A stretch of 64,000 nt of DNA from Clostridia bacterium (GTDB lineage: Bacteria > Bacillota > Clostridia > Oscillospirales > Acutalibacteraceae): the NCBI GenBank assembly GCA_017507805.1, contig JAFWAC010000018.1, forward strand, positions 62,001 to 126,000, in the 5' to 3' direction. The notes beneath the pieces were generated by a model, which saw only the letters and a list, made by a program, of their open reading frames with translations, was not told the origin of the DNA and did not search any database. Shown in pieces: positions 7,948-62,290 of the stretch. Numbering within the stretch: the first letter of the stretch is position 1; the number at the start of each line of letters is the position of its first letter. The position numbers and the translations under genes are program-made.

Positions 7948-10365
7948 TTATTGTGGTTTAACAACAATATTTACGAGCTTCTTAGGAATGTAAAGCTCTT
8001 TTACGATATTTTTACCCGAAAGCTCGTTAGAAATTGCCTCCTGTTCCTTTGCTAATGCAATAGCATCAGAAGCAGAAATATCAGCGGCAACATTAAGACG
8101 GGCTTTGATTTTTCCGTTTATCTGAACAACTATTTCCACGGTTGCGTCAACGCATTTACCTTCATCAAAGGCGGGCCATTCGGTTTGATTAAGCATACCC
8201 TCAAAGCCGTTAAGCTGCCAAAGCTCCTCAGTAATATGAGGTGCAAAGGGATTAAGTAAAATCAGGAAGGTTTTATATTCGCCACGGGTGATTTTTCCTG
8301 TGGCTTGAATAGAGTTAAGCAAGGACATTAATGCCGCAATCGCAGTATTCATCTTAAGACCTTCAATATCCTCGGTAACCTTTTTGATTGTACGGTGAAT
8401 TTCAGCCTCGAGTTCAGGGCGGTATCCGTCACTGTCGGTCAAAATATCACTTAATGCCCAAACCTTATCAAGGAAGCGCTTACTGCCCTTAATTGAGGAC
8501 TGACTCCAAGGAGCCGCTTTTTCAAAGTCTCCTATAAACATTTCATAGACACGCATAGTGTCAGCGCCGTAGTTTTCAATTATCTCATCGGGGTTTACTA
8601 CATTGCCGCGGGATTTTGACATCTTTTCGCCGTTTTCACCCAAAATCATACCGTGGCTTGTGCGCTTAGAATAAGGCTCAGCATTAGGTACAACACCGAT
8701 GTCATAAAGGAATTTATGCCAGAAACGGCTATAAAGCAGATGCAAAGTAGTATGCTCCATACCGCCATTATACCAATCAACAGGACACCAATATTCCAAA
8801 GCCTCTTTTGAAGCAAGCTCTTTATCATTGTGTGGATCGCAATAGCGCAGGAAATACCATGACGAGCCTGCCCATTGAGGCATTGTATCGGTTTCGCGCT
8901 TGGCAGGCGCGCCGCAGCAAGGACAGGTTGTATTAACCCAATCGGTCATTTTTGCCAAGGGAGATTCTCCGTTATCTGTGGGTTCGTAGGATTCTACATT
9001 GGGCAACAATAACGGAAGCTCGCTTTCATCGAGAGGAACATAACCGCACTTTTCGCAATAAACCATTGGGATAGGCTCACCCCAATATCTTTGACGGGAG
9101 AACACCCAATCGCGAAGCTTATAGTTGGTTTTAACACTGCCTATTCCCTTTTCTGTGAGCCAAGCCTGAATAGCCTTTTTAGCCTCTTCAACAGAAAGAC
9201 CGTTAAGGAAATCAGAATTAACAAGCTTGCCGGTTGCGCATTCTGTATATGCGGCTTTTTGAACATCCTCGCCGCCCGACACAACCTCGATTATAGGCAA
9301 ACCGAACTTTTTGGCAAAATCCCAATCTCGGCTGTCGTGTGCAGGAACTGCCATAATAGCGCCGGTACCGTAGGAAATAAGTACATAATCCGAAATAAAA
9401 ATCGGAATTTCAGTATTATTAACGGGGTTAATCGCAGTAACACCGTTAAGCTTTACGCCGGTTTTATCCTTGGCAAGCTCGGTACGCTCAAAATCAGATT
9501 TCTTAGCCGCGGTGGTCTGATATTCGCGCACCTCATCAATATTGCTGATTTTATCAGCCCATTTTTTAAGTAACGGATGCTCAGGAGACATTACCATATA
9601 TGTCGCACCGAACAAGGTATCAGCACGGGTTGTGAAAATTTCAAAGGTGTCACCGATATTGGTGCTGAAGGTTACCTGTGTACCGTAAGATCTGCCGATC
9701 CAATTGCGTTGCTGTGTTTTAACACGCTCAATAAAATCAACATCCTCAAGACCGTCAAGCAGCTTTTCGGCATAATCTGTGATTTTGAGCATCCACTGAC
9801 TTTTTTCCTTTTGGATAACCTCACTGCCGCAACGCTCACAAACACCGTTCACAACCTCTTCATTTGCAAGCACGCATTTGCAGGATGTGCACCAATTAAC
9901 TGCCATTTTCTTTTTATAGGCTAAGCCTTTTTTGAAAAGCTGTAAAAAAATCCACTGTGTCCATTTGTAATATGACGGGTCGGTAGTGTCAATTTCACGG
10001 CTCCAATCGAAAGAAAAGCCCAAAGACTTTAACTGTCTTTTAAAGTTTTCGATATTCTTTTCAGTAACAATTGCAGGGTGAATATGATTTTTAATGGCAA
10101 AATTCTCAGTAGGCAAGCCGAAAGCATCCCAACCCATAGGATAAAGAACATTAAAGCCCTGTAGTCTTTTCTTACGGCAAACTATATCTATTGCAGTATA
10201 AGAACGCGGATGGCCCACATGCAAGCCCTGTCCCGATGGGTAAGGAAACTCAACCAAGCCGTAAAATTTAGGCAAGGAATAATCGTTTTTGGCGGCAAAG
10301 GTCTGATTGTCATCCCATATTTTTTGCCATTTCTTTTCAATTTGACTGTAATCGTAATGTTGCAT
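7948..10365 (-). CDS. leuS: Leucyl-tRNA synthetase
   Basis: This 805-residue class I synthetase charges tRNA-Leu. The HIGH box reads [12 protein letters not shown] near residue 50 and the KMSKS loop reads EKMSKSRGN. Between them lie a four-cysteine zinc insert ([21 protein letters not shown]) and the CP1 editing domain. A second CxxC pair (CEKCGY, CPCCG) precedes [11 protein letters not shown]. Its GGAGGAA ribosome binding site overlaps the rsfS stop, so translation is probably coupled. No T-box leader is present, which fits expression from an upstream operon promoter. Confidence 0.97.
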
Positions 10366-41238: not shown

Positions 41239-41250
41239 AATAATATATTT

Positions 41251-41348
41251 GCAGAGTAGACAGTCGAGCGTTAAGTGCCTGTGGGACGGGGAGTTGCCCG
41301 CAGGACGAAGGAACTTTTTCCCGCGGTTCGGCAGTCGCATCCCGCTGC
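41251..41348 (+). ncRNA. Tetrahydrofolate (THF) riboswitch
   Basis: The sequence follows the folE-motif consensus: GCAGAGTAGAC at the 5' side, GCGTTAAGTG, GGACGAAGGAAC, CGCGGT and the closing GCATCCCGCTGC that pairs with the start. It lies upstream of the folate transporter folT, its best-known context. THF riboswitches bind reduced folates at two sites and shut off folate uptake or synthesis genes. Confidence 0.93.
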
Positions 41349-41364
41349 CGTTTAATATCGGGTT

Positions 41365-45629: not shown

Positions 45630-45647
45630 ATAAGCATACAATATATA

Positions 45648-45723
45648 TGGTTCTTTGTGACTGACGGATTAGTAGTGGAGCACCACATGAATCAAAGGAC
45701 CTTTGAGCCGACCGTCTGGGCAC
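45648..45723 (+). ncRNA. ZTP riboswitch (pfl motif)
   Basis: Hallmarks are GTGACTGACGG in the 5' subdomain, the small hairpin GTGG-AGCA-CCAC, CTTTG/CAAAG pairing, and the 3' signature GAGCCGACCGTCTGGGCA. The ligand ZMP/ZTP is AICAR mono-/triphosphate, which accumulates when 10-formyl-THF is short. The controlled genes start with purE and end with fhs, an ideal regulon. Confidence 0.92.
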
Positions 45724-45761
45724 ACTTATCCCTTTTTCGGGGTGACAAGTGCGCCCTTTTT
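45718..45761 (+). terminator. Riboswitch-controlled terminator before purE
   Basis: GGGCACACTTATCCC and GGGGTGACAAGTGCGCCC form a long stem followed by TTTTT. The left arm overlaps the CTGGGCA of the aptamer, so ligand binding and terminator formation exclude each other: a transcriptional ON switch. Confidence 0.88.
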
Positions 45762-59742: not shown

Positions 59743-59775
59743 GCAGACTGCAAAATTGCGGTCTGCTTTCCTTTT
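59743..59775 (+). terminator. Terminator after the gene remnant
   Basis: GCAGACTGCAA and TTGCGGTCTGC form an 11-base stem followed by TTTCCTTTT. Confidence 0.7.
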
Positions 59776-60184
59776 ACCTATCGTTATAATAGCCTTTTAG
59801 AATTTCATCAAGATGAACCTTACCTCTTGTTCTGCGGACATTGTTTATTGCTTCGGCACGCATACTATCAAGTTCTCTGTCGCTAATATCCGTAATCTGT
59901 GCAATGATTCGTGTTATCATTTCAAGCTCAACTGCATATCTAAACAAGCCTTTTGAAATTGCTTTCGCATTATCTTCAGATAAATCCGCAACTGCTTTTG
60001 AAAGTTTCTCAGATAATATCGGGCTATTATCTTTTAGCATCTCGTTTGCAATATAGTTTTCAATCATTGCAGAAAAGAATTCGTTTCTTGAAGAATATCC
60101 TAATTTGTCCTTTGCTGCATCTGCTTTTTTGATAAGTTTTTTATCTAAATAAAGACTAATTCTTTTCATATTGGGAGAGTCCAT
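59774..60184 (-). CDS. Ribbon-helix-helix DNA-binding protein (MobC/relaxosome-like)
   Basis: A 136-residue protein. The N-terminus KRISLYLDKKLIKKADAAKD, then LGYSSRNEFFSAMIENYI, is a ribbon-helix-helix domain: a basic beta strand and two helices. A helical C-terminal part ends RRTRGKVHLDEILKGYY. Similar proteins assist relaxases in mobilisable elements or act as antitoxins. No relaxase or toxin gene is beside it in the window. AGAGGTGAT precedes the ATG. Imperfect inverted repeats lie directly upstream. Confidence 0.7.
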   Translation of the reverse strand: MDSPNMKRISLYLDKKLIKKADAAKDKLGYSSRNEFFSAMIENYIANEMLKDNSPILSEKLSKAVADLSEDNAKAISKGLFRYAVELEMITRIIAQITDISDRELDSMRAEAINNVRRTRGKVHLDEILKGYYNDR

Positions 60185-60710
60185 TTTTTATCACCTCTTT
60201 TCATTACACCAACAGGTTGCCACCTGGTGGCACCTAATATTTTTCTTAGAAAACGGCTTAAAATCGGCAAACCTTATTTTTATAGGCGCCGTTCTTTACG
60301 CCAAACGCATTTTTACGGCGCCTAAAGGTGTCAACCAAAATTCAACTTTAAATTTCTTCACAAATGGCTTAAACATGCCTTTTTTCGGTCGGCTCTGCCG
60401 TCCGATGTGATGTGCAGCGACGTCGTTTACGGCGTCGTTGCTTTCACCTGCTTGATTTTCGACCCTGAAAAATTCGTCCGAAATTCCATTTTAAATTGTT
60501 TTCACAAATGCCTCAAATTTCGTTTTAATGGTTTATACCGAGTCTGTACCCTATTTTTGATACAAAAACCCACACAAGTTGAAACACGGGCGACAAAATG
60601 CGAGCCTATGGTTTTACATACCTTTTTAATTTAAGTTTAAGAAAATACCGTTATTTTTTCTCTGAAAATTTCAATTTTTAAGCCCAATTTTTTGTTCGAA
60701 AACATTGTCT
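60185..60710. other. Gene-free region with GC-rich inverted repeats, candidate oriT
   Basis: No convincing gene. It holds an imperfect dyad at 60,204-60,232 (around CCACCTGGTGG), a perfect 10-base inverted repeat TAGGCGCCGT/ACGGCGCCTA (60,283-60,292 and 60,315-60,324), CGGTCGGC-TCT-GCCGTCCG (60,386-60,404) and GCAGCGACG/CGTCGTTGC (60,414-60,422 and 60,433-60,441). A roughly 30-base imperfect direct repeat, including TTCACAAATG, recurs near 60,345-60,375 and 60,485-60,515. Its place beside a ribbon-helix-helix gene fits an origin of transfer; not proven. The stretch 60,600-60,710 is plain AT-rich. Confidence 0.5.
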
Positions 60711-61106
60711 TTAAACTGCCTTATTATTTTCCTTAAAATTCGGTTTGTTTTTATTCCTTAAATTAAACTCTAATTTCATCATTTGCTGCCTATAAAAATA
60801 GTCTTTTGCTTCCTTAATAGGTCGGATAGTATACCGCAAATTTCCGTTCTGTTTTTGCCCTGTTTTTAAGGTTACAGTTGTATGCTCTGTGCTAATAAGA
60901 CACTTATTTTCAAGACTTTTTACATATTTCATAACTGTTTTCTTACTCATTTTTAATGCCTTTCCTATCGTATTATAGCTTGGATAGCATGTATAAGTTT
61001 CTCTATCTTCACAGGACATAAGGTATGTATAAACTGCTAATTCACCACTGTTCAAACCTAAGCAAAAGATTTCATTAGGCATAGGAAAGTAATTGTTTTT
61101 CTTCAT
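60711..61106 (-). CDS. Helix-turn-helix protein of mobile elements
   Basis: A 131-residue protein. KNNYFPMPNEIFCLGLNSGE is followed by a winged HTH (YPSYNTIGKALKMSKKTVMKY, ENKCLISTEHTT) and a charged tail rich in Lys/Asn. This arrangement is seen in replication- or transfer-control proteins of Gram-positive conjugative elements. GGAGGG precedes the ATG, which follows the upstream excisionase-like stop by three bases, so both are made from one transcript. Confidence 0.72.
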   Translation of the reverse strand: MKKNNYFPMPNEIFCLGLNSGELAVYTYLMSCEDRETYTCYPSYNTIGKALKMSKKTVMKYVKSLENKCLISTEHTTVTLKTGQKQNGNLRYTIRPIKEAKDYFYRQQMMKLEFNLRNKNKPNFKENNKAV

Positions 61107-61109
61107 TCA

Positions 61110-61313
61110 TTACCCTCCTGTATTCCGTTCTACCCACTCTTTAAATTTTGATTTCTCTACGAGTAATCTGTTGCCAACCTTTAGTACAGGAAAGTCTTTT
61201 TCATGCATAAGTTCGTATGCAGAAGACGGTGCTATACCCAATACCTCTGCTAAAGTTTTTGCATTTAAAAAGAGCGGAAGCTCATCATAATTTTTGTAAA
61301 TTGATTCTTTCAT
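61110..61313 (-). CDS. Excisionase-like small HTH protein
   Basis: A 67-residue protein with a MerR/Xis-type HTH: FLNAKTLAEVLGIAPSSAYE, then FPVLKVGNRLLVEKSKFKEW with the RLLV wing. Such proteins direct excision of integrative elements, normally with a tyrosine recombinase that is not in this window. Its ribosome binding site (AAAGGATG) begins about 20 bases after the terminator of the putative noncoding RNA, so some expression may come by readthrough. Confidence 0.75.
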   Translation of the reverse strand: MKESIYKNYDELPLFLNAKTLAEVLGIAPSSAYELMHEKDFPVLKVGNRLLVEKSKFKEWVERNTGG

Positions 61314-61339
61314 TTTTAAATCATCCTTTCAAATTTCAA

Positions 61340-61935
61340 ATAAAAAAGACTCATATTTTTAAGTGAAACAACCTTACATCGTTGTTTCAAACTTTAAAAT
61401 ATAAGTCTGAAAATTTTTACAAATATTCAATTTTTAATATATATCTTTTGATGTGATGTTAACTAATTAGTGTTCAATTAAATTTAAAATGAGTACAATT
61501 CACCTAAGGACCTGACAACTTTTCATTCAAAAACTTAAATAATTACGGTCCTACATCCACGCATTTTTGCTTACCAACCGTTTTCATATCTTGTAGCATA
61601 TTAAAATTCATCTCGCTACAAATTCAACATCTGTCATTGAAACAACTATCCACATTCATTGTTTCAACCAATTAATTTTCGATTCGTATTTGTCCACCAC
61701 ATCCCCGAATCAAGGAACGTTTTTTCCTGGTCATGCCTTTGACCTTCATAGGAATTTCACCTCTCAGATGTCACCTGAGCCCTATTGGGGAAGTATCATT
61801 ATACCCTCTATTTGTTATCGTTCCAATATGGGTTGCACCACATCGTCTAGGTCGTGCCTACTGTAGCTTGTTGGTTTGCCAACAACAGAGGGGAAAGTAA
61901 AAGAAACGCTGATATATATTTTTCAAGATTCGTAC
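61340..61935 (-). ncRNA. Candidate large structured noncoding RNA (about 600 nt)
   Basis: No reading frame fits. The minus strand has a promoter upstream, and a long terminator hairpin ends it. Inside are many stable stems: TTGTTGG/CCAACAA (61,868-61,885), CTCAG/CTGAG (61,763-61,779), GGTCA/TGACC (61,729-61,744), AGGAA/TTCCT (61,713-61,728), GATTCG/CGAATC (61,681-61,711), TTGAAACAA/TTGTTTCAA (61,637-61,667), TTGTAGC/GCTACAA (61,591-61,621) and AGGACC/GGTCCT (61,507-61,552). CCCTCT (61,892-61,887) can pair with AGAGGG (61,808-61,803) to close a multibranch domain. Length and setting recall ROOL-type RNAs; identity unproven. Confidence 0.65.
61342..61408 (-). terminator. Long terminator hairpin of the candidate noncoding RNA
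   Basis: Arms 61,408-61,381 and 61,372-61,347 pair over about 25 positions with few mismatches, including GTTTGAAACAAC against GTTGTTTCACT. A T run (six bases) follows on the minus strand. It lies between the structured region and the excisionase-like gene. Confidence 0.85.
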
Positions 61936-62290
61936 ATTTAGGTTAACATAATACTATAAAATTGTCAATATATTTTGATATTATTTCAACCTAGTGTTAC
62001 AGAATATTTACACTTTATACACATACAAATATCTATTTAATGTATTTCAGTTAACGAATTTATGATTTACAAATAAGAAAACAACCACTATTCATTTTTC
62101 AGAAGAATGGTCGTGCCTTGCATTAGAACTCATCGACAGAGCCTTATCTAAACATATTAAATATTAAGATTATTGTATGCAAATTCGAAAGTTGCTTATC
62201 TTTGATTTATGCGGTATAAATTTTACACTATATATTAATAGATGAAATCCTGCCACCCTGTCCATAAGCACATGTAAATATTTTACCGCA
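61936..62290. other. AT-rich region without genes
   Basis: No open frame of note. One hairpin at about 62,084-62,116 (AACAACCACTATTC against GAATGGTCGTG, imperfect) is followed on the minus strand by TTGTTTTCTT and could be a terminator for something transcribed from the right. Otherwise nothing recognisable. Confidence 0.4.
61940..61968 (-). promoter_or_regulatory. Candidate promoter of the noncoding RNA
   Basis: Minus-strand TTGACA (61,968-61,963), 17-base spacer, TAACCT (61,945-61,940). The -35 is perfect and the -10 is weak. It would start transcription near 61,933. Confidence 0.5.

What the first reader, a model, noticed from the sequence alone, without database searches (positions are those of the whole stretch)
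61340..61935. Possible large ornate noncoding RNA next to an excisionase gene
About 600 bases without a reading frame carry a promoter-like signal, at least eight hairpins with 5-9 base stems, a possible multibranch closing helix and a strong terminator, all on the minus strand. The stem sequence TGAAACAAC/GTTGTTTCA occurs in two separate hairpins (near 61,640 and in the terminator), so alternative or intermolecular pairing is possible. Size and mobile-element setting resemble ROOL or GOLLD RNAs, but the sequence may also be a new class. The hairpins and terminator are seen directly; the class is inference.
Basis: partly seen in the sequence, partly recalled or inferred. Interest (0 to 1): 0.85.

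Follow-up and report, generated by a model that had tools for sequence, protein, structure and literature searches.

The report
Antiterminator RNA in a phage remnant
The stretch holds a structured RNA of about 243 bases that is related to one which, in the gene-transfer element Tn916, lets RNA polymerase run past stop signals; here it sits in what looks like the remains of a deleted phage-like element.

Summary
The stretch is noncoding and folds better than shuffles, but it is not one 600-nt RNA. The conserved part is 61685-61927 (minus). Rfam sees only its 61-nt core (pemK RNA, RF02913). A profile of the whole element, built without the window and Tn916, matches the window over nearly its full length (E 1.2e-17); a covariance model of its 5' domain also does (E 2.7e-4). 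In relatives that domain covaries and follows a boxA-like motif shared with rRNA operons. In Tn916 this RNA lies in canT, a published cis-acting processive antiterminator (PMC11658703), whose inactivating S3 mutation falls in the pemK core. Best reading: a canT-class antitermination RNA; pemK and dinG are pieces of one RNA. My searches found no paper making that link. Sibling genome G555 has 4.77 kb more, with filamentous-phage-like genes, between the RNA and the terminator. The window copy has lost them, and the hairpin near 61640 was formed at the deletion junction. ROOL/GOLLD are not supported. The window copy is probably a stranded remnant; its activity is untested.

The parts
61685..61927 (-). 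conserved canT/pemK-class RNA element
   Evidence: whole-element profile HMM built from 78 relatives without the window and Tn916: E 1.2e-17, model positions 2-319 of 330
61913..61927 (-). boxA-like motif CTTGAAAAATATATA (degenerate against the family form CTT(T)GAMAAYTGAATA)
   Evidence: position; family motif; rRNA counterpart
61899..61908 (-). P0 closing helix, 5' strand
   Evidence: read from sequence; helix supported in relatives by partner swap; weak in the window itself
61718..61727 (-). P0 closing helix, 3' strand; one C-A mismatch where G555 has C-G
   Evidence: read from sequence
61884..61892 (-). P1 helix, 5' strand
61804..61816 (-). P1 helix, 3' strand
61790..61927 (-). 5' domain (boxA-like motif to start of core)
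   Evidence: covariance model R1, 39.9 bits, E 2.7e-4
61746..61802 (-). pemK RNA core, RF02913, with AUAAUGAUAC
   Evidence: 52.7 bits, gathering score 34.8
61729..61744 (-). P7 hairpin GGTC...GACC
   Evidence: read from sequence; hairpin at the same place in relatives by eye, not tested for covariation
61681..61711 (-). 3' module: GATTCG/CGAATC pair around GGGG...ACAAATA
   Evidence: read from sequence; present in a part of the relatives; partner-swap support is weak
61656..61662 (.). deletion junction: 4.77 kb present in G555 is missing here
   Evidence: two blastn blocks against L278 overlap by these 7 nt
61634..61670 (-). hairpin near 61640, formed across the deletion junction; not part of the conserved RNA
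61342..61408 (-). intrinsic terminator between the lost rep gene and xis
   Evidence: -25.9 kcal/mol, z -7.16; counterpart in G555
61110..61313 (-). excisionase-like HTH_17 gene
60711..61106 (-). HTH_36, replication-initiator-like gene
59774..60184 (-). ribbon-helix-helix gene
59758..62235 (.). stretch shared with the element of sibling genome G555
   Evidence: blastn blocks of 88.1%, 93.2% and 73.8% identity

Best explanation
61685-61927 (minus) encodes a canT-class RNA: a cis-acting leader that, once transcribed, changes the RNA polymerase that made it so that it reads through terminators (processive antitermination). Order: boxA-like motif as in rRNA leaders, closing helix P0, a branched 5' domain under P1, the pemK core with AUAAUGAUAC, hairpin P7, an optional 3' module. 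In intact elements it would let one transcript pass the element's terminators. In sibling G555 it stands before a phage-like structural and rep operon that is followed by a terminator and xis. In the window that operon is deleted, so the RNA now stands only before the terminator and the xis/HTH_36 genes and is probably a stranded remnant. Shown here: homology, covariation, boxA-like motif, gene setting, deletion. Shown by others for Tn916: antitermination. Inferred: the same activity in this lineage, and any role of boxA with NusB-S10.
For: Rfam pemK core. Whole-element profile E 1.2e-17 in the window, 9.4e-22 in G555, 5e-32 in the Tn916-type region of pCF10. Covariance model of the 5' domain: window E 2.7e-4, Tn916 type 2.1e-11. 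Covariation: 210 cells changed on both sides against 44-73 with partners slid; P0 own -15.6 against swapped -9.5 kcal/mol over 80. RF02913 lies between orf8-type HTH and xis in pCF10; the 452-bp canT fragment covers it and S3 falls in the core. canT is cis-acting, orientation-specific and processive (PMC11658703). boxA-like motif 106 of 148 against 5 of 148 shuffled, also in rRNA leaders of the window's family. Next gene on the same strand in 69 of 76.
Against: No transcript or activity data for this lineage. The sequence-only profile of the 5' domain alone gives the window only E 0.25. The window's P0 pairs no better than swapped partners (rank 23 and 55 of 80). Its boxA-like motif is degenerate. 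In Tn916 the active 452-bp fragment starts 2 nt inside the boxA-like motif, so a full boxA may not be needed, and in a 400-bp fragment S3 had little or no effect (PMC11658703). No clear promoter. Three related phage-like loci lack the RNA in the stretches held.
Confidence: 0.75

Rival explanations
1. A cis-regulatory leader of another sort (ligand-sensing, or control of translation of the next gene), as the Rfam label Cis-reg suggests; antitermination would be special to Tn916.
For: Median distance to the next gene is 134 nt and the first genes vary (PemK, excisionase, recombinase partners, ParA). Three-dimensional, well conserved core.
Against: The same RNA in Tn916 antiterminates without other Tn916 genes and with foreign promoters and terminators (PMC11658703). 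Downstream genes do not share one metabolic theme. boxA-like motif at the 5' end.
Confidence: 0.15
2. A free-standing noncoding RNA of the ROOL/GOLLD kind, possibly multimeric, with the terminator as its 3' end.
For: Size impression, mobile-element setting, strong terminator.
Against: No Rfam match to those families. The 3' 300 nt belong to another intergenic stretch. Relatives stand before genes rather than alone.
Confidence: 0.03
3. A single-stranded DNA structure (for example a replication or transfer origin) rather than an RNA.
For: Elements with rolling-circle type rep genes nearby (Rep_trans-like).
Against: The transcribed strand folds better than its complement in 63 of 80; boxA-like motif in fixed orientation; canT fails when flipped behind its promoter (PMC11658703).
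Confidence: 0.03

Closest known systems
canT of Tn916 (Wirachman and Grossman 2024, PMC11658703)
   Same: Homologous over the whole element; RF02913 core in the same place before xis; boxA-like motif at the start.
   Different: Window copy is in a deleted phage-like element, lacks int and the transfer genes, has a degenerate boxA-like motif, a shorter P2 region and a weak P0. No activity shown.
Rfam pemK RNA RF02913
   Same: Core matches above the gathering score.
   Different: The Rfam model has 61 positions; the conserved RNA is about four times longer. Rfam gives no function beyond cis-regulatory type.
Rfam dinG RNA RF03082
   Same: 3 of 4 dinG loci match the same 5' domain model; two of them show the boxA-like motif.
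   Different: The window scores 20.4 bits against a cut-off of 46.9.
rRNA boxA antitermination leader
   Same: CTTTGAAAACTG / CTTGAAAATT motif before a structured, stalk-closed RNA.
   Different: Here followed by a mobile-element RNA; dependence on NusB-S10 is unknown.
RNA antiterminators put (HK022), EAR, conAn2 (pLS20)
   Same: RNA-based antitermination, as described in passages of PMC11658703 and PMC8955417.
   Different: No Rfam match of another family in the window stretch at its cut-off; pLS20 bases 1-50000 of 65774 have no pemK and no R1 match.

Membership tests
Rfam pemK RNA (RF02913) | covariance-model score above the gathering score | tested here: met
   52.7 bits against 34.8
canT-class RNA | homology over the whole element, not only the core | tested here: met
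   profile E 1.2e-17, R1 E 2.7e-4; 5' domain by sequence alone only E 0.25
canT-class RNA | closing helix P0 formed | tested here: inconclusive
   supported in relatives; in the window rank 23 and 55 of 80 against swapped partners
canT-class RNA | co-directional with a recombination module (xis-int) or a long operon | tested here: inconclusive
   xis-like gene downstream but no integrase in the homologous stretch; operon deleted, present in G555
canT-class RNA | processive antitermination in cis | not testable with these tools
   shown for Tn916 by others (PMC11658703); not for this copy
rRNA-type boxA leader | boxA sequence | tested here: inconclusive
   family met; window copy CTTGAAAAATATATA is degenerate
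rRNA-type boxA leader | dependence on NusB-S10 | not testable with these tools
   needs an assay
ROOL / GOLLD / OLE / HEARO / raiA | Rfam match at the gathering score | tested here: not met
   three Rfam matches in the window, none of these; none up to E 10 in 61300-62200
Rfam dinG RNA (RF03082) | covariance-model score above the gathering score | tested here: not met
   20.4 bits against 46.9

The most novel reading that the evidence does not exclude
pemK and dinG RNAs are pieces of one widespread antiterminator class that joins an rRNA-type boxA to a large branched RNA in a single cis element. Conjugative and phage-like elements of Firmicutes use it to make RNA polymerase ignore terminators across their recombination, transfer or structural operons.
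Probability: 0.5. Interest if true: 0.8.

Novelty: new member of a known kind. Interest (0 to 1): 0.66.

Why it matters
It ties an orphan Rfam family, and probably a second one, to a tested function. It gives canT a covariation-backed structure, which its discoverers say they did not pursue, and names a testable partner (boxA with NusB-S10). If right, existing Rfam pemK hits become a map of where mobile elements cancel terminators.

Tried and rejected
ROOL/GOLLD and relatives: no Rfam support; the other weak Rfam hits there are far below their cut-offs. blastn of the 601-nt stretch against phages and plasmids gave only short matches, covering 11% of it or less. A first viral pattern scan found nothing; a looser one found 14 stretches. 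A second copy in the own genome: the other 30 matches are short, best E 0.1. Promoter prediction at chance. Sequence decay of the window copy: not supported, it keeps 46 of 57 family-conserved bases and G555 47. pLS20 as a carrier: no match in bases 1-50000 of 65774. Phage-like relatives of the G555 ATPase: 3 of 300 genomes of the family, none in viral contigs; the three stretches fetched (10.3, 19.0 and 3.4 kb, two cut by contig ends) have no pemK or R1 match. The RNA is therefore not general in such elements as far as seen. The first gene calls took spurious short ORFs and were replaced. A sub-alignment meant to show a closer subfamily of the window caught only two sequences. The P8 partner-swap gap is small (-18.0 against -15.8).

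Rows dropped or chosen: the 80 RNAs were chosen for having the loose boxA-like motif at the expected distance (103 of 148 full instances, clustered to 80), so the unbiased boxA count is 106 of 148. A3 holds 34 of the 37 references printed (L031, L075, L078 left out). A1 holds 128 of the 129 downstream proteins printed (one 2424-aa protein left out). The structure counted was fitted on the same alignment, so the counts lean towards it.

Full report
What is there. The window is G000:C5:62001-126000 and its contig ends 210 bases further on, so the upstream side is nearly cut off. On the minus strand 61340-61935 has no frame of 40 aa or more and folds better than 20 of 20 dinucleotide shuffles. 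Rfam reports one family in it at its cut-off: pemK RNA RF02913 at 61746-61802, 52.7 bits against 34.8. That model has 61 positions.

The RNA is larger than the Rfam model. With the own genome counted, pemK hits occur in 44 of 150 genomes of the window's family and in 26 of 398 of its phylum. Around them one larger layout repeats: a CTT(T)GAMAAYTGAATA motif, a helix strand (P0), a branched domain closed by P1, the pemK core, a hairpin (P7), the other P0 strand and, in a part of them, a 3' module with ACAAATA. The loose motif CTT(T)GAMAM lies upstream in 106 of 148 full instances against 5 of 148 after mononucleotide shuffling. The strict form occurs 43 times in 300-nt windows upstream of the core of 80 RNAs and 0 times in the other 1.72 Mb of those loci, both strands; the 80 were chosen for having the loose form, so the second number is the telling one.

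Structure. Over the 80, P0 strands pair with their own partner at -15.6 kcal/mol on average and with swapped partners at -9.5; own is the best of 80 in 28 cases and in the top tenth in 65. P1 gives -16.3 against -12.2. Two control pairs of regions give -7.1 against -6.9 and -13.6 against -13.2. On an alignment of 34 relatives of the 5' domain (window and Tn916 left out) six helices have 87.0% of cells paired against 38-45% with partners slid by 1-3 columns, and 210 cells changed on both sides against 44-73; 25 of 30 pairs have such a change against 15-21 slid and 19.7 on average in shuffles. The structure was fitted on this alignment. The transcribed strand folds better than its complement in 63 of 80.

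The window belongs to it. A profile of the whole element from 78 relatives, without the window and Tn916, hits the window at 61927-61685 with E 1.2e-17, G555 with 9.4e-22 and the Tn916-type region of pCF10 with 5e-32; a profile of the 5' domain alone gives E 0.25, 0.0031 and 1.9e-9. The covariance model R1 of the 5' domain hits 46 of 49 sources at E below 0.01, among them the window (61790-61927, E 2.7e-4) and the Tn916 type (2.1e-11); at least two of the 49 were in the model (L091, and L127, which holds the RNA of L058). pLS20 and L069 gave nothing and L134 gave 0.048. R1 also hits 3 of 4 loci of a second orphan family, dinG (L068, L070, L071), so pemK and dinG look like cores of one RNA. The window's own P0 is no better than swapped partners (rank 23 and 55 of 80); its P1 is good (rank 10 and 0).

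What it does. The next gene is on the same strand in 69 of 76 (median 134 nt) and the previous one in 68 of 73 (median 92 nt to the motif), by a simple gene caller of my own. Of 128 downstream proteins (up to two co-directional genes per locus) 24 match Resolvase, 20 Recombinase, 18 PemK_toxin, 11 HTH_17, 8 ParB_N, 5 Phage_integrase and 5 AAA_31 (ParA type); of 70 co-directional upstream proteins 23 match sigma-70 region 4 and 9 HTH_16. One relative, L130, is Tn916 by its genes and by identity: 701 bases at 99% or more in 10 of 16 plasmid records with a match, two of them annotated as Tn916 excisionase, with the antisense 83-codon orf5 and its alanine 30. In Tn916 this region is canT. From the abstract, sections 9 and 10 and passages of PMC11658703: canT is a cis-acting, orientation-specific, processive antiterminator, most likely RNA, needed for transfer-gene expression after excision. 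Its 452-bp fragment runs from 126 to 577 bp after orf8, which on L130 is 9844-10295 and spans the pemK core at 10001-10101. The three-base S3 change (ATA to TGC) was aimed at a tyrosine codon of orf5; orf5 has two, both in GATAATGATAC (position read from the sequence). So a published loss-of-function mutation falls in the most conserved motif of pemK RNA. Results of that paper that do not fit simply: in a 400-bp fragment S3 had little or no effect, and some shorter pieces were active while a 291-nt one was not. Its main text has no occurrence of boxA, pemK or Rfam. Of my ten library searches three aimed at the link by name and none found it; Weinberg 2017, which I recall as the source of pemK RNA, is not held.

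boxA. In 8 of 16 rRNA loci of other genomes the motif TCTTTGAAAACT lies in the 16S leader or the 16S-23S spacer within the stretch held. In the window's own family, G054 (two operons) and G007 have CCTTGAAAATTAAACAACG 185 and 177 bases before 16S and TTGAAAACTGAA in the spacer; G175 of the class is less clear. That this is the NusB-S10 site is inference from rRNA antitermination (PMC10250234, passages). Against a needed role: the active 452-bp canT fragment begins 2 nt inside the motif, and what the vector adds is not known to me.

What happened in the window. Sibling genome G555 of the same genus matches window 59758-62235 in blocks (88.1%, 93.2%, 73.8%), with 4.77 kb more between the first two. 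That DNA encodes small proteins without a family, a P-loop ATPase (AAA E 6.9e-6; Zot PF05707 E 0.017 and a PHROG Zot-like family E 0.004, but a clamp-loader PHROG is better at 2.4e-8) and a Rep_trans-like protein just under its cut-off (E 1.2e-6). I read it as a filamentous-phage-like element, with moderate confidence. The window keeps the last bases and stop of rep beside the junction (read), so the window lost DNA rather than G555 gaining it; a misassembly of this draft genome is not excluded. The terminator survives between the junction and xis. So the 600-base object joins a conserved RNA of about 243 bases to an unrelated 3' stretch.

Confidence. That the window holds a member of the pemK/canT RNA class is close to certain; that such RNAs antiterminate in intact elements of this lineage is likely; whether the window copy still does is open. 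The object is a new member of a known kind. The larger gain is joining pemK, dinG, canT and boxA.

Noticed in passing
window 41250-41349 (+) and 45647-45728 (+): THF riboswitch (90.4 bits) and ZMP/ZTP riboswitch (60.5 bits).
   Followed up: no
up to 70 nt before the boxA-like motif in relatives: A hairpin, sometimes terminator-like, stands just before the motif: mean fold z -2.7 against mononucleotide shuffles, below -1.5 in 58 of 80. It may be a boxB-like part or the end of the upstream gene.
   Followed up: partly
window 61826-61798 (-): The best promoter-like match (TTGGAA-17-TATAAT) falls on the conserved pemK core, whose TATAATG resembles a -10 box; probably coincidence.
   Followed up: no
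L278 8989-9035 (-): G555 carries a DUF3800-XI RNA (43.2 bits) right beside the end of the shared stretch.
   Followed up: no
G012:C6:68792-69256 and 74242-74706: Two copies of the phage-like ATPase gene region 5.4 kb apart with identical scores: possible tandem element.
   Followed up: no
L273 2853-3082 (+): The Tn916-type region of pCF10 also holds an Rfam SQ2397 cis-regulator (229.8 bits).
   Followed up: no
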